This document shows, one piece after another, positions 11,690 through 20,600 of a DNA stretch of 64,000 nt. A program made the position numbers and the translations under genes. The stretch's first letter is position 1, and every line of letters starts with the position of its first letter. The stretch comes from Cliona cf. orientalis (Eukaryota > Porifera > Demospongiae > Clionaida > Clionaidae), in the NCBI GenBank assembly GCA_963930775.1, contig OZ005705.1, positions 3,348,001-3,412,000 on the forward strand. Direction: 5' to 3'. The notes beneath the pieces were generated by a model. The model ran no database searches. It was not told the DNA's origin and worked only from the letters and a program-made list of their open reading frames with translations.

Positions 11690-14600
11690 TATGCAACCCT
11701 GCTGACTCTATAATTATAAAAGAGAACATCTAGGACCAGAACCCTGTTTAGGTGCAGGGTATGTAGTTCAGTAACACCACAACCCTATTCAGGTGTAGGG
11801 TATGTATGTAATTCAATACTGTTAGAATTAAGTGTTCGTCTAGACTGGTTCATTCACAGCACAGAATATTGTCAGAAGGTTTTGGTCCTATTGCACGCTG
11901 TGAACGTTGACGATTATTACTGCAATAATGAATGCACAGAAGTGCAGAACCCTCACCGCTACATGCATGCATATAATATAGCATGGCTCACTGTGTATAA
12001 TACTATGCATGTTCAATGCCAGGAGCCTTGAAAGTTTACAGGCAAGATGGTACTCATGCAGATTTACTACATATAGGTTTGCCTTGCTATCCCTTGGCCT
12101 TAGCTAATAATATAGTATACATGTAGACTATGCTGCTAATAGTGCCATCAGGTAGACAGATATTTATGCATGTACTTTGGATCCAATTTGCTACTACAAA
12201 ACTACAAGATCATAGATGGTGCTTGGAGAGGCAACCCAATCCTCCCCTTACTGCACTATCCAGGGGCGTAGCCAGGATTTTAGGTAAGGGGGTGCTGGAG
12301 TACGCGCGCGAAGCGCGCGCGCAAAAATTTAAGCCACGCCCACTTATTAATCGTCAAGGTCGAAGTTCAAATTGTCAAAGAGAACACGTTCTGAATGTAG
12401 CTAGCGAGCTAGCTCAAGGTTTTCGGCCAGATATTGGGATAAGATAAGTTTCTAACTGTCTTCTAAGCTGTTGTTTTTGTAGTTGTTTTTGTAGTTGATG
12501 ATAGTTTGGAGTAGCCAAGGGGGTGCTGGATGAGACTGTTCTATGAACTATGTGAACTAGGCATGACTAGGCCAAGAGCAGAGGGGGGTGCTCGAGCCCC
12601 CTGAGCACCCCCCTGCCTACGCCACTGCTATCTATGCTGTGAACGAACATTTGTCAAGTTGATGACTTATTATGTGTACATGTACATCACCCTATAATTA
12701 GTTTCTGCAATACTATATACAGTAGCGGTCAATAAAAAGTTAATGTTCCGACGATCGTACCAACGGGCACACTGATTGATCTTCACACCGTTCTCATAAA
12801 CATTATCGCAAGCTCACTTTTGTTTTCGATCTCACAACACGGCCCGCGCTATTATTGAAATAAACGGCCACACCTACTGTACCGTTTGCATTTGATGTTC
12901 AACGTTTGTTCACGTTCAGTTCTACGCAACTGAGACGTGTGAAAAGATGGTTTTTTAACATACAAGAAGCAGCGAATTCTCTTTTTTGCTTCGAGAGGTC
13001 TGAAGAGTCCTGCTATGGCAAAAGAACTACAAAAGGAAGGATTGAAGTGTTTGAGGATTGGTATTTACAAGTTTTTGAAGAAGTGTGAAGCGACTGATTC
13101 AATCCAAAGACGAGTAGGCTCTGGACGTCCATCAAAGGTTACAGCAGAAATCAAAGAGACAGTTAAAGGACAAATGAGAACTGACGGCGAAACTACTGCG
13201 TACCAGCTTCATCGCCTCCTGACGGACAAGGGCTACACCATCTCCCTTCGCACAATACTTCGTTGTAGGACTGCTCTGGGATGGATGTTTCGCGGTAGTG
13301 CGTACTGCCAGCTAATACAAGAAGCTAACAAGGCCAAGTGACTTGCATGGGCCCAAGAACACCTCGATGATTCCTTCGAGGATGTCATCTGGACCGATGA
13401 GTGTACAGTGCAGATGGAGAGTCATCAAAGATTCGCGTGCAGGAAGCTTGGTGAAGCTCCTTGTCCAAAGCCAAGGTACATTTGTAAAAAATAATCAAGT
13501 CAGTACTACATTGTAGCTATTATCGTACATGTACATTGTATCTTTGCATAGGCCTAAGCACCCAACTAAGGTCCACGTTTGGGCAGGGATTAGTAAGAGG
13601 GGAAGAACAGGAGTGTGTACATTTGAAGGGACAATGAAAAAGGAACTGTTTGTAAGCATCTTGGATGGGACTCTGCTCCCCTTCATTGAGAACGTGTATC
13701 CGGAAGGTCACAAATTCATGATGGACAATGATCCTAAACATACCAGTCTGGTTAATAAGCGCACATGCCTATTAAGCGCATGCTTCCTTCCTGTTGTTAA
13801 GTATTGTCTAATAAGCGCATGCCCCCAATAAAGACGACAGCAGTATTCACTGTTCGATCAAGAGTGTTGCATGCTCTACATGGCTAGAACTAACTTACCA
13901 ACCTATTTTCGGATAGCCAGCTGCACGAGATCGGCTACACTCAATACTGTGATGTTCCACTGAGATGGGTTCGGACTCTTTATATACCTTGACTTCGAAG
14001 CGAGTCTCCCCGTAGAAGTCGGCTTTTTTTCCGCGGTTTTCTTCCAGTGATGGCTTCCGATCATACGGCCATGAATTAATACAGAGCTTATTCCAAGAAT
14101 CGCTGTGTTCATAACTTGCTAGCTTTGTGATCGAGCACTCGAACGTACTGGCAGTGGGCGGGGCCAAAATTTCACTCTCTATTAAGCGCACATCGTCTAA
14201 TAGGTGCATATTTCCTTACCACCGAGAGTGATAAGCGCATGCGCTTATTAACCAGACTTTACGGTACTTCAGGCTATGCTGCTGACTGGATGAAAGAGAA
14301 TGGTGTCAATTGGTCAAAGACCCCGGTCGAGTCCCCTGACCTCAATCCAATTGAGAACCTGTGGCACGAGCTGAAGGAATATGTAAGAAGAGAAATTAAG
14401 CCAAGATCAAAGGATGAGCGAATTCAAGGGATTGTCCAGTTTTGGGGAACAGTGGACACTGCCAAGTGCTTGAAGTACATAGGCCACCTCCTCACTAAAG
14501 TCATTCCTAAAGTAATAGAGTTACAAGGAGCAGCCACAGGTTACTAGTAGTATTATCTGTGTGTATCAATCAAACTACATGTATTATCCCATAATTATCA

Positions 14601-17600
14601 CTTTAGCCTCATTATTTTTAACAGGTGATGATAAAGCACTTTAGCCTCCTTATTTTAAACAGGTGACTCTAAAACAATCTTAATATGCATGGTAATACTA
14701 CATCTGATTTAATGTGCATGGTAGTTTAGTTAGTGCATATGATGCTATACACTGCATGTACATGTAACAGATTGTTGCTACAAGTACTTTCTTGAGCTAG
14801 ACCTTAGCCTCTTGCACGCTTGCCCAATTGAGTCTTCGGCACACCTACACTGCTCTTCAAATTCATACGGGGACTTCCAGTACTGGAGGAAGAGTGAAAG
14901 GATCTTACTCTTTAACTCGTTCATCTCACGCTCGGGAAGCCCAGGAAGGTCTTGTTCTCCAGCCACAGTACATTGGTCCATGAAGGCCTCCCCAAAGTAT
15001 GTGTAACGAACAGGAAACATTGTGTAACTGATTACTTCCTGTATTACATCATAGACGGTATAGTGTGTGCATGTGTGTATCGTTCAGTTATCCGTAGTAT
15101 TTCCCCTTGTTTAATACCTCCAACTACTGTACGAGAGCGCAGGCAGGGAGCAGTCGTTACAGGTGGGCCCCGTCCGGGGTCCTGCGACCACTCGTAGACG
15201 TGCGTCTGCCAATCAGTGTGACTTGGGATCGAGATCGAGCGTGGCGTTACATTTGGCGTACCTTGCCAGGATCGACGGCAGTTTGTGCAAGACAGCACTG
15301 ATCAGAATTCAACGAGTTCATAAACCACGCAAAGGACAGACATTGAAACTGTTAGCAGTATCTTTGAGTCACCCGTTATTGCCGAGAACCCCAAGATGAA
15401 AGCCTTGTCAGTGTTTTAATACCGACATCGCAGATGCAGCAGCGGTGCTGCATGTTTGTCGCAGTTTGCAAAGCCTCAGCAGTGCTACCCAGCTGATGCT
15501 GAGGAGGGATTTTACTTGGTGACCATAAGGAGAGATAGTGGTTTGTTCTGGTGAGACAAGGGTGACTAGGTGAATGGTGCTAGTGTAAACAATTAGTGCA
15601 CTCAGCTCAGCTGTGAGGGCTTTGATGTGTAGCTAGCAGCCTCAACAGTGGAGGAGTTGACCACAAGGACCTGAGTGGGCTTGGAGCCCAAGGAGTTGGA
15701 TGATGGAGATCCAGCTGACACCACAGACAGTCATAGGTGCAGTGGAGGTGGAGACCACAGGAACTGGTAGAACTAGGTGGACGGCAGGACTGGCGGAGAC
15801 AGGGTGGAGATCACAGAGACTGGCAGGTGGCCAGGTGAAGACCACAGTGTCAACAGAGCCAGGCGGAGTTCACAGCAGCTGGTAGGACCAGGTGGAGACC
15901 ACAGAAGGGGAACCACGAGGAAGTGGATCGCCTGAGCACAGGACTGGCAGTGGGTACTCTGGTTGCAGAGTGAGGTAGAGACTTTAATGGAGAGTGTGAG
16001 ATCCCTAGGAAGTGGGATGACAAGAAAGTCGAATTCAGAAGGAGACTGAGAGAAATCAGCGACAAGTTGTGAGTCGCATGGAAAGCAAATTGAGTGCAAG
16101 AGTATGGTACCAGCTAAGGGTGGGGACCACCCTGAAATGGCCAAGAATCACAAGTTAAAGGAGAACCAAGTCAAGTCTGAGAGTGTAGTGTTCCCTAAGG
16201 GTGGGGACATCAACGTAATCAACAGAAACAACCAAGACACTTTGAAAACACTTACTGTCGAGTGAAGAACCCAGGTCGAGGATGCCCTGAACTTAAGGGT
16301 GGGGATATGTAACGAACCGGAAGCATTGTGTAACTGATTACTTCCTATATTACATCATAGACGGTATAAATGGTGTGTGCATGTGTGTATTGTTCAGTTA
16401 TCCCTAGTATTTCCCATTGTTTAATACCTACAACTACTGTAAGAGAGCGCAGGTAGGGAGCAGTCGTTACTGGTGGGGCCCGTCCGGGGTCCTGCAACCA
16501 CTCATAGACGTGAGTGAGTCTGACAATCAGAGTGACTTGGGGATCGAGATCGAGCGTGGTGTTACATATGCTTCCTTGGCAAGCTTCTGTGCCAACGTTG
16601 GCAACCTGCTGTCGCAAAGAAGTTTGGGATTCTTTCTGATGATAACGTCTGCTGGCAATAGTGTGGCTGTGTCAATAGCAGACGATGGCAAGGGTGGCTG
16701 GGTGGGCTTCTTGCTCTTCTTCCTCCGATAAGCCACAATGTCACCCATGCTTAAAGGTTGTAGCTGGCGGAATGGAAGGCGGCTGAGTTGATTTTAATCT
16801 TGGATAGATGGAGGCAATGGCTGCGATGAAGAATGTGACTGAGCTGGTGGTACATGTCCTGGTGATGGGTTCACTTGCGGTACATGTCCTGATAGTGGGC
16901 GTGGTGGTGGTAAATTTTCATCTGGAAGCATTGGTAGTGGATGTTCTTGACGAGAGGGGTGTGCCAGTCCACAGTCGGGATGTGCTTGTGGTCGACGCCC
17001 TGGTTGAGGAGAGGAGTATGCTGGGCGTGGTTGTACTGCTGGTGGAAGCAGAGGACGCCGCACGGGTGTACTTCCAGGCACTGGAGGTGGATGAGCTGGT
17101 GGAGGGGTATGAGTACTGGTGGCTGATCGAAGGAATAATCCTGTTTATCATTGAAACTGTAGCAGGTTTGATTGTTCTCTAGCTTGACTAGCCTAGTCAA
17201 AATTTCATCTTGCTTTTGTAGAATTGATCTTTGTATCACCAGCATGTGTACATGTCCTTCCTCCAACACAGTTACCCGGTCTAATAGTTCTTGCACCTCC
17301 ATCTCTAGAATCAGAGAGTCAACAGCTTCATGTGGTGGAGTAGGCTTAGTTGGCGACACAGAGATGCGGTACTTAACTGGTGGTGGAAGTGAGCAAACAC
17401 TGGAAACACTAGAAAAGCTGGACGACAGTTCCAGGAGAGGGTACGGCTGTTGTGGCTGAAATACTGTCCCAGAAGGTCCTGGCTGAGATGATGCTGTCCC
17501 AGAAGGACCTGGCTGTCCAGGACCACCACACACTATAGCTGAGTCAGGCTGAGGTGAAACACCAGCTGAAGACTCTGGCCCAGTTGGTTTTAGTGGTAAA

Positions 17601-20600
17601 CAGGCTTATAGTTGACTGTTGTCTGTATCTGGCTTTGGTGGTGAACTGCTATTGGGTGCCTGTGGTTGACTGTTGTCTGCATCATGAGCCACAATCTGGA
17701 GAATCTTGCCTGAGAAGATCAACATAAAGGAAGTTAATGTCCTATTGTACACTACTTGCACTAAATTGAATGTGCATGTACATGTACATGTAGGGTGTGC
17801 ACTGACCTTCAGACTTTTGCTTCTTTTTCTGCCCCTTTACAGCAGAGCTGGTCTTACTCTCTTAGATTTCACTCGAGCTGTATGACATTAACACAGTTTT
17901 ATCAGACACTGATGTTATGCACAAATGGTGTACATGTACATGCATGTATTCATACATGTACGCATGTCACTTTAGGTTATTGCAATGGTTACTGACCTTC
18001 ATCCTTTTTCCTGGGAGGCTTTCCTTCTTCCACTGTTTCTCCTCTTGGTCTCTTGAACTGCACGATGGAAAGAATGGAGTTAATACAACTAAGGAGAGAG
18101 AGAGGGGGGGTAGAGAGAGAGAGATAGTGAGAGAGAGGGAGGGAGGGAAGGAGGGGGAGAGGGAGAGGGAGAGGGAGAGAGACCTTTTTTCTTGCTTGTT
18201 TTTGTTTTGATCACTTTCACACTGGCTCTTAGTGCATCTGAATCTTCAGCTGCCAATAGATAAGAGCAGTTACATGTATGTACATTATGTACATATTCAT
18301 ATGGATAGTACATATACATGTACGTGTGCATGCATATACATACATACATACATACATACACATACACATACACATACACATGTACAGTAGTGTACATAAT
18401 ACGTACCTCGATCTTGAGTTGTTGATGAATGGGACTCTTCAGCTTCATCAGCGCTTTCTAATTCTTTCCATCGTCGCTCTATCTCCACTTTTGTTCCAAT
18501 TGCAGTTATAGTTCCTGAATAGAACTTTCCACCTTGCTTCACCTTAGCAATCGCTCCCACAGTGGCTTCCTTGGGCTCAACAAGTTTGGATTCTAGCACC
18601 TTGCTATAGCACTTCTCATCAGCCCAGTACAGCAGACAGTAGCATTCTGCGGTGGGTTAGAAATCAATTCATGCCACACCTACTATGATAATATGGCTTG
18701 AACCATAATACAGCCAATCGTTTTTAAGCCAAAATCTGCCGAATAAAACTAATGTACTTTATAATAACGCTTACTTTTCTTGTCCCGTAGATCTTTGAGT
18801 TCCCGTTGAATAGCCATGACCACGGCGATCGAGAAGCCCGTATACTGATTGGAGTCCACCGACTTCGAGTGTTGGCGTGGAGCTGGCTGCAATCTTGGTA
18901 GTTGTAGATCGAGAACTTCAGCTTGGCAGTCTTCGATATCAATGTCGTTTTAACCAACTGCATCTTTTATGAATGTGCAAATGTCTCAACGTGTGTCAAA
19001 CGATGACAACCTTTGTACCCAACGCCCTGTACCGTATATTATCTGCACGTGTGCGCACTTTCTCTTTCCGTTTTTTTAGATCGCTCATTTCGTCGGAAAA
19101 CAATGCTTTAACTTTTTATTGACACTACTGTACATGTACAGTAGCGATCAAAAAACATTGCCATTTCCTCTATACCATTTGTACCCTTGCAAAACAGAGC
19201 AGGAACCGATTGCAAATGCAGACTAGCACCTCCATTCCCTTCCATTCATTTCCTGCAGTTGTATACTGGGCTAGGCTTCAAGCTCTGTACTGTGGTATGG
19301 GTACATGTAGCTTTTACAAGTGCATAGTGGGCAAGCCCAGCTTGTACCAAAACAGGAAGCGAATGTAGCAATCAATTTGCTAGGGGGTTCTATACCATAG
19401 AAGGAATGGATGGCAACCAAAGGGGTAGAAGGTAACAAAAACGGCAATGTTTTTTTACCGCTACTGTATATTGTGCTTATATAGCATGATGCAAAGAAGG
19501 CAGGAGCTGAGGTTGTCAAGCAAGTTAAGAATCCACTTCTAAGTGGATTGCTATATCCTGGATTACAGGCCAGTATTATGAATGAATAAATTAGCATGTA
19601 TTGAATCATATGCTCTAATTTAGGCTCTCGATGAGGAATATTTAAAAGTGGATGCCCAGTTTGGTGGAGTAGATCAGAGAAAGATTTTTACCTTTGCTGA
19701 AAAGGTATGATTATTTATTGTATGTTATCCTTAATTGATGTATAAGTATATTGATATCTCTTAATAGTATCTCCCTCATTTGGGCTATAAGAAAAGAATC
19801 CATCTGATGAATCCCATGGGTATGCACCTGTACACTTAATGGATATTTAGTTTTAACAATTGTTCAGTTCCAGGGTTGACTGGTGGTAAAATGAGTGCAT
19901 CTGAACCGGTAAGTATAGTCAGTAGTATTGACAAAACGCCAATGAGTATGTGATTAAAAGTGCTGCTGGAAGCTCTGCTAGTTGAAAAGACCATTGATGA
20001 TGCTTTGATTCTACATTCACGCCTACGCACTGATTGCCATATCACCCATATGTTTGGATCTGCATGCACAGGCAGGCACGGATAGCCCACAGTGTATCCA
20101 CAACCAGGAAGATACATACATGTATCAGCAGCCAGAAAGAGAGTAAACAGCGAGCAGGATGCGGGATGCGTGCAGATCTCATGTGGGTGTATCATTTAAA
20201 GCTTTCTGCTGATCTAGTACTGTCAAACCGCAAATATTGATACTGACTGACGGCTCTCTGACTTTCCACGAAATTTAGCACCCCCAAATTATACATGTAC
20301 CCGTGCTTACTATGCAAAAACATTCATGGTAGCAGAGCATGATATTCATCTGTGAAGCTAGGGGTGCTAATCAGTACGTCTTCGCCATCCTCAGATACAT
20401 CATGTACGTTTTACCTTTAGAATTAACGTACCACACATTCAAGTCAAAACGGTTCTTTAGGAGGATATGTGAAACTATGAGAACGATAGCAGATGTGATA
20501 ACTGACCAAATCAGAGTGTTTGAGCAGGTCCTGAATGCGCCGGTGTGCGCCACTGATATTGGTCACATGACTTCATCATGGCAACACTGTATAAGCGTGG

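What the first reader, a model, noticed from the sequence alone, without database searches (positions are those of the whole stretch)
12718..19132. Tc1/mariner-type transposon that carries a second, spliced BEN-domain gene
Seen: matching inverted termini (TACAGTAG..TCAATAAAA) with TA at both tips enclose a DD34E transposase on + and a multi-exon BEN-domain gene on -, converging tail to tail. No terminus lies between the two genes. Known: Tc1/mariner elements normally carry only a transposase, and BEN domains bind DNA or chromatin. Inference: the BEN protein may be an accessory factor for targeting, repression or evading silencing. I know of no described Tc1/mariner group with this layout, though I cannot search.
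Basis: partly seen in the sequence, partly recalled or inferred. Interest (0 to 1): 0.88.

Follow-up and report, generated by a model that had tools for sequence, protein, structure and literature searches.

The report
Two-gene jumping element with BEN partner

Summary
The window copy (12718-19132) is a dead relic: its transposase is broken by an in-frame stop and a MITE-like insert, its BEN gene by an LTR-flanked insert. Elsewhere in the same 217-Mb assembly the arrangement recurs: 29 of the 30 best transposase loci have a BEN exon convergent to the transposase, 31-1035 bp past its end. Fifteen other elements of 4.0-5.6 kb have TACAGT-type inverted termini around both genes; two of them, both 4115 bp on different contigs, are 99.93% identical over the 2942 bp compared. 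Among 18 TIR pairs examined none has single-gene size. Of 127 BEN places 85 lie within 3.5 kb of a related transposase (chance 0.48): 68 convergent, 17 same-strand, none divergent. BEN codons are under purifying selection (omega 0.10) and co-diverge with the transposase (r 0.84). Best reading: a Tc1-type lineage with a stable BEN accessory gene; its role (chromatin targeting or anti-silencing, transposome factor, or repressor) is inferred. Multi-gene Tc1/mariner elements are known (TBE, Fanzor-mariners); five literature searches showed none with BEN.

The parts
12718..12743 (+). left terminal inverted repeat, TA at tip
19108..19132 (-). right terminal inverted repeat (one mismatch and one gap against the left), TA at tip
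12958..13476 (+). transposase, N-terminal part (HTH and first catalytic Asp), with an in-frame stop at 13339-13341
13550..13744 (+). transposase, middle part (second catalytic Asp) after a short intron-like gap that several copies have at the same place
13745..14258 (.). MITE-like insert with 28-bp inverted repeats inside the transposase
   Evidence: I2
14259..14547 (+). transposase, C-terminal part (catalytic Glu) to the stop
14793..15001 (-). BEN domain, C-terminal half
15002..16566 (.). LTR-flanked insert (LTR-like repeats 15002-15251 and 16308-16566, TGTAACG...GTTACA, TATG on both sides) that splits the BEN domain
   Evidence: D1, D3, D11, D14
16567..16793 (-). BEN domain, N-terminal half, and upstream conserved segment
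16871..17605 (-). proline-rich and coiled-coil-like part of the BEN protein
   Evidence: frame; resemblance to other copies by eye
18407..18646 (-). exon with the conserved N-terminal domain (Tudor-like, tentative), with splice-like AG before and GT after it
19137..19468 (.). separate neighbouring MITE with a related TIR tip (not part of the element)
   Evidence: I1

Best explanation
It is a decayed copy of a Tc1-type (DD34E, TACAGT-tipped, TA at both ends) DNA transposon lineage whose standard gene set is two: a transposase, and a spliced gene for a protein with a conserved N-terminal (possibly Tudor-like) domain, a coiled coil and a C-terminal BEN domain. SHOWN: both genes lie inside one pair of termini, move together, have stayed together through the diversification of the family, and both are under purifying selection. 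INFERRED: the BEN protein is a DNA/chromatin-binding partner made by the element for itself. I think it most likely oligomerises by the coiled coil, binds DNA by BEN, reads chromatin by the N-terminal domain, and so either keeps the element's chromatin open or steers the transposase-DNA complex to a chromatin type (about 0.45 for this pair of roles); next a transposome accessory factor binding the element ends (0.3), then an auto-repressor of copy number (0.15).
For: 29 of 30 best transposase loci have a convergent BEN exon 31-1035 bp behind the transposase. 15 convergent elements other than the window have TIRs around both genes: 10, C2:7449562-7453676, C4:5615253-5619367, C7:3863292-3867937, C14:5217220-5222559, C2:9611699-9617300 (termini, genes). 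For the ten the 12-base flanks differ, except one segmental duplicate pair; pairwise matches between several elements stop at the termini. The C2 and C4 copies, both 4115 bp between termini, are 99.93% identical over the 2942 bp compared, which hold the transposase (331 open codons in both) and the BEN exon; their left flanks differ. 85 of 127 BEN places lie within 3.5 kb of a transposase place, chance 0.48, none divergent. Among 18 adjacent TIR pairs from the 100 listed of 203 places: 6 of 573-610 bp and 12 of 4.0-11.3 kb, none of single-gene size. Omega: BEN 0.104, transposase 0.068; fixing omega at 1 costs 228 and 611 log units. Mantel r 0.844, 0 of 9999 permutations as high, n=18; several shared subclades and the same main split in both trees. 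Acceptor-like AG just before the N-terminal domain in 23 of 24 printed copies, donor-like GT after it in about half (by eye).
Against: Function is untested: no expression, binding or transposition data. 42 of 127 BEN places have no transposase within 3.5 kb, and 31 of 116 transposase places no BEN there (22 at 6.5 kb); seven of these 31 are among the 75 best-ranked (ranks 28, 35, 40, 49, 61, 62, 68 of my list). In the convergent clade BEN is a weak Pfam match (5 of 17 members not listed at E<=1; best 5e-8), and the PDB profile match to BEND3 is E=0.27; it is firm in the same-strand clade (BEND3, 5.8e-7). The profiles were seeded from peptides of five of the loci then scored (and, for the N-terminal domain, the window's). 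The Tudor-like call is not significant (Foldseek E 0.27, model pLDDT 66). The close pair C1:23.4/C1:35.8 Mb has BEN omega 1.42 (1 synonymous, 5 nonsynonymous); it is a segmental duplicate. The omega=1 run fixed kappa at 2.0 while the free fit of BEN gave 1.15. The BEN tree splits the two clades far more deeply (0.99+1.32 per column) than the transposase tree (0.17+0.25), so BEN may have been captured twice. All context evidence is from one assembly, and related copies are not independent of each other.
Confidence: 0.85

Rival explanations
1. BEN is a passenger: a host chromatin gene captured by chance and carried along without helping the element.
For: Captured genes are known in DNA transposons (general knowledge). 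The BEN protein has long variable low-complexity linkers. Relative orientation of the two genes varies.
Against: Omega 0.10 over the element tree and retention in 29 of 30 loci; co-divergence r 0.84; no transposase-only derivative with two termini among the 18 pairs examined. A neutral passenger would be expected to decay or be lost.
Confidence: 0.07
2. Two independent elements or a host BEN gene lie side by side and only look like one unit.
For: The window copy is full of inserts, and one MITE with a related tip lies next to it.
Against: Same convergent layout at many sites inside one TIR pair; two 4115-bp copies on different contigs with different left flanks, 99.93% identical over 2942 bp.
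Confidence: 0.02
3. BEN is an element-encoded repressor that limits copy number, not a helper.
For: BEN proteins are known as transcriptional repressors (title of Dai et al. 2013, seen only as a reference entry). Copy numbers per family can be low: the TIR of the C2/C4 family occurs 8 times with <=3 mismatches, 4 of them exact.
Against: A repressor that hurts its own copy is expected to be lost more easily than the transposase; BEN is kept with the transposase in 29 of 30 loci.
Confidence: 0.15
4. BEN was captured more than once: the convergent clade and the same-strand clade took up different BEN genes independently.
For: Much deeper BEN than transposase split between the clades, and different layouts.
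Against: L086 and L087 of the same-strand clade share the protein plan (similar N-terminal domain, coiled-coil-like stretch, C-terminal BEN, by eye), and BENs nearer to the same-strand clade also occur convergently, e.g. C6:9326121, C6:5690236, C1:36476138, C16:5052964 (42-51% to the L086 BEN).
Confidence: 0.3

Closest known systems
Tc1 family of Tc1/mariner (Tc1, Sleeping Beauty)
   Same: DD34E transposase with DDE_3 and a weak HTH_Tnp_Tc3_2 match; the only solved structure at E<=1e-5 for P0006 (99% identical to the L086 transposase) is the Sleeping Beauty catalytic domain, 3e-23; TACAGT termini and TA ends (Tc1 and SB TIR tips recalled, no call).
   Different: About 4.0-5.6 kb between termini instead of 1.3-1.7 kb (sizes recalled), with a second spliced gene in the opposite or same direction.
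TBE (Oxytricha) and Tec (Euplotes) ciliate elements
   Same: TBEs are Tc1/mariner elements with three ORFs: a 42-kD transposase, a 22-kD ORF in reverse orientation and a 57-kD zinc-finger/kinase ORF, all apparently under purifying selection (PMC4724952, passages read). Extra genes of Tec elements are recalled.
   Different: No BEN gene is mentioned in the passages read; the accessory proteins are of other kinds; germline elements of ciliates.
Fanzor1-carrying mariners and viral mariners with endonuclease/methyltransferase genes
   Same: Mariner-type TIRs and TA duplications enclosing a transposase and further genes (PMC3627910, passages read).
   Different: Captured gene is Fanzor1, nuclease or methyltransferase; the four examples the paper calls most interesting are single-copy and virus-borne or possibly so.
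PIF/Harbinger (ORF1 Myb-like + transposase)
   Same: Two element-encoded proteins, one a DNA-binding accessory required for movement (PMC2836001, passages read). A working analogy.
   Different: Different superfamily; here the transposase keeps its own HTH region, so BEN need not supply end recognition.
BEND3 and other BEN-domain chromatin proteins
   Same: BEN domain of the same-strand clade matches BEND3 chains 7v9g/7w27; BEND3 binds CCCACGCG sites, and its loss raises DNA methylation in mouse ES cells (PMC10602864, passages).
   Different: Host genes, not inside transposons; BEND3 has several BEN domains, these show one.

Membership tests
Tc1/mariner superfamily, Tc1-type | DDE_3 transposase with D..D34E spacing | tested here: met
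   (7.6e-23); spacing 34 counted by eye in the C4:7.92-Mb and window sequences
Tc1/mariner superfamily, Tc1-type | paired-type HTH N-terminus (HTH_Tnp_Tc3_2) | tested here: inconclusive
   3.7e-5, 24.4 bits, below the curated cut-off 31.5; 0.002; many database relatives carry it as a precomputed domain
Tc1/mariner superfamily, Tc1-type | TIRs with TA at both ends (TA target duplication) | tested here: met
   no empty site was compared, so duplication itself is not shown
Tc1/mariner superfamily, Tc1-type | short, single-gene element | tested here: not met
   15 convergent elements besides the window with two genes; no single-gene TIR pair among 18. This is a usual, not a defining, feature
Tc1/mariner superfamily, Tc1-type | placement in the Tc1 branch of a superfamily tree | not tested
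   no tree with reference families was built
BEN-domain proteins (PF10523) | BEN profile match | tested here: met
   12 of 17 convergent-clade members at E<=1, best 5e-8; 3e-7, 31 bits over the cut-off of 23.2 in the same-strand clade; window's own pieces no match
BEN-domain proteins (PF10523) | sequence-specific DNA binding | not testable with these tools
   needs a binding assay
Tudor domains | significant fold or profile match | tested here: inconclusive
   Foldseek top three are Tudor chains but E 0.27-0.91 on a pLDDT-66 model; Tudor_2 E 0.011, below cut-off, in one relative
TBE/Tec elements | their particular second and third ORFs | not tested
   no comparison with TBE proteins was run; their domains as described do not include BEN

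The most novel reading that the evidence does not exclude
A deep, multi-clade lineage of Tc1-type transposons in animals depends on its own BEN (plus Tudor-like) chromatin protein as a regular second gene, carried in three gene arrangements, to reach or reopen particular chromatin; some of the BEN genes without a neighbouring transposase in this genome would then be domesticated from it.
Probability: 0.35. Interest if true: 0.85.

Novelty: new variant of a known kind. Interest (0 to 1): 0.74.

Why it matters
Tc1/mariner elements are the textbook case of a transposon that needs only its transposase. A large lineage that keeps a chromatin-type partner gene under strong selection asks what the partner is for, and offers young copies with which to test it. 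It could also change how BEN genes are read, since at least 85 BEN places in one genome sit within 3.5 kb of a related transposase, and it offers a natural pairing of a transposase with a putative chromatin protein.

Tried and rejected
Rejected: side-by-side elements (see rivals); BEN as an ordinary host gene at this locus. Led nowhere: BEN profile in viral contigs and genome contigs, transposase P0006 in viral contigs: none (these collections hold viruses, bacteria and archaea). Matching contig lengths between BEN hits (3672, 2663, 1210, 3437, 2321) and the nearest transposase hits (1730 and 2250 for the 91-93% ones), to put both genes on one foreign contig, gave no coincidence. Fold of the BEN region of P0005: helical but mean pLDDT 53, not searched further. 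No TIR found by my scan for L084 and L087. The C14:4.97-Mb copy lacks the terminus on the transposase side in the DNA held.

Literature: 'BEN domain' with transposon + Tc1 (2 papers), with transposable element + transposase (4), with mariner (3), with DNA transposon (2), 'BEN domain-containing' + sponge + transposon (0). None of the titles and abstract starts listed describes a BEN-carrying Tc1/mariner. Passages of PMC5704228 (only a reference entry), PMC4190172, PMC10602864 and PMC11075544 were read and do not either; PMC9579193, PMC8228293, PMC4574769 and PMC4641500 were seen only in the listings. Passages of PMC7325037 gave nothing on BEN in the part shown (12 of 44 places). Abhiman et al. 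2008 is not held. Repbase-type reports and most subscription journals are outside that library.
Full report
WHAT IS IN THE WINDOW. Between them lie a transposase on + and a multi-exon BEN gene on -, tail to tail. The copy is dead: the transposase has an in-frame stop (13339-13341) and a 514-bp inverted-repeat insert (13745-14258); the BEN domain is cut in two by a 1565-bp insert with LTR-like direct repeats (15002-15251, 16308-16566) and TATG on both sides. Taking those two inserts off the 6415-bp span leaves about 4.3 kb, the size of the better-preserved relatives (arithmetic).

DOES IT RECUR? The window is part of a 216.8-Mb assembly of 149 contigs. The BEN exon gave 23 matches, the transposase C-terminus 133 (150 of 192 candidates scored, so a lower bound), the N-terminal exon 35. 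In 29 of the 30 best transposase loci a BEN exon lies on the opposite strand, 31 to 1035 bp beyond the transposase end; the miss is a fragmented transposase (C4:5611274). Inverted termini of the same kind enclose both genes in ten of the assembled loci, and in five more: C2:7449562-7453676, C4:5615253-5619367, C7:3863292-3867937, C14:5217220-5222559 and C2:9611699-9617300 (with the genes). In the ten the short flanks differ, except C1:23.4 and C1:35.8 Mb, which share theirs and are a segmental duplicate. The C2/C4 pair is 99.93% identical over the 2942 bp compared, both copies are 4115 bp long between perfect 30-bp termini on different contigs, with 331 open transposase codons in both and different left flanks; right flanks were not compared. 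The C4:7921870-7926222 copy has a different terminus sequence, a 334-codon open transposase and large BEN exons.

IS THERE A SINGLE-GENE FORM? Of 203 TIR matches (control 0) 100 were listed; they form 18 adjacent inward-facing pairs within 15 kb: six of 573-610 bp (MITE size) and twelve of 4.0-11.3 kb. None has the 1.3-2 kb of a transposase-only element. One pair, C1:24862289-24868902 (6.6 kb), and the 11.3-kb pair were not looked into.

HOW FAR DOES THE PAIRING REACH? Searching with the Pfam BEN model and two BEN proteins gave, with four places, 127 distinct BEN places; 85 are within 3.5 kb of one of 116 transposase places (chance 0.48): 68 opposite strand downstream, 12 same strand downstream, 5 same strand upstream, 0 divergent. 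42 BEN places have no such neighbour; 31 transposase places have no BEN within 3.5 kb, 22 within 6.5 kb. Among the 75 best transposase places 68 (3.5 kb) or 71 (6.5 kb) have one. The same-strand form was read in four loci: L085 and L086 have TACAGTAC-type termini 4471 and 4180 bp apart around an open transposase and a BEN gene; no TIR was found for L084 and L087. Further termini of the L086 type surround the C13 and C11 copies.

IS IT BEN? In the convergent clade the match is weak singly (12 of 17 members hit PF10523 at E<=1, best 5e-8; P0005, a 45% relative in the protein database, passes the cut-off at 26.6 bits). In the same-strand clade it is firm: 31 bits (cut-off 23.2) and BEND3 chains at 5.8e-7. 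The protein also has a conserved N-terminal domain (alignment A2). By eye 23 of 24 printed copies have an acceptor-like AG within 13 bases before it and about half a donor-like GT after it. In P0005 the stretch before BEN is a confidently predicted long helix. The N-terminal domain's model from the window (pLDDT 66) resembles Tudor chains best, but without significance.

SELECTION AND CO-DIVERGENCE. On 18 elements, codon models give omega 0.104 for BEN and 0.068 for the transposase C-terminus; omega 1 is 228 and 611 log-likelihood units worse, with kappa held at 2.0. Pairwise BEN values for the six closest pairs: one pair without any change, then 0.45, 0.11, 0.29, 0.16, and 1.42 for the segmental duplicate. 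Protein distances of the two genes correlate at r=0.844 (0 of 9999 permutations), and the trees share several small clades and the same main split; some inner forks are unsupported in both. The BEN split between the two clades is much deeper than that of the transposase; faster change or separate capture both fit.

WHAT IT DOES. Shown: a two-gene unit, moved and kept as one, with BEN under selection. Follows from known families: BEN domains bind DNA, BEND3 at CCCACGCG (PMC10602864, passages). Inferred: the protein serves the element. The transposase keeps an HTH-like N-terminus, so BEN is not needed in place of it, unlike the Myb-like ORF1 of PIF/Harbinger (PMC2836001, passages). I favour a chromatin role. 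The absence of divergent pairs is compatible with each gene being driven from its own end.

NOVELTY. Multi-gene Tc1/mariner elements exist: TBE with three ORFs apparently under purifying selection (PMC4724952, passages) and Fanzor1 or nuclease/methyltransferase mariners (PMC3627910, passages). Five library searches showed no BEN-carrying one. Related transposases are numerous in the protein database (2008 at E<=1e-10; 1180 at E<=1e-60; organisms not shown), but whether BEN goes with them there could not be tested. I rate it a new variant of a known kind.

Noticed in passing
window 15002-16566: LTR-flanked insert (about 250-bp repeats, TATG on both sides), TRIM-like, inside the BEN exon.
   Followed up: partly
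window 13745-14258: MITE-like insert with GTCTGGTTAATAAGCGCA inverted repeats in the transposase; a copy 88% alike lies at C10:4327013-4327507, just beyond another two-gene element.
   Followed up: no
window 19137-19468: 332-bp MITE whose TIR tip (TACAGTAGCGATCAAAAAAC) resembles the element's, next to its right end.
   Followed up: no
C1:29066692-29067291, C7:6217949-6218521, C1:30501832-30502441 and three others: Six TIR pairs 573-610 bp apart: probably non-autonomous derivatives mobilised by the two-gene elements; their insides were not read.
   Followed up: no
C8:4089745, C1:29281957, C1:23074179: BEN places with open frames of 630, 498 and 440 codons and no transposase within 6.5 kb: host BEN genes or domesticated copies.
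   Followed up: no
C6:159228-941718: Ten similar BEN places on the same strand at the start of contig C6 (five with two or three TGA in frame), several of them 5-10 kb after a transposase place: a repeated array.
   Followed up: no
L087 1-984: A second, different transposase-like frame next to the same-strand BEN element (by eye, no family search).
   Followed up: no
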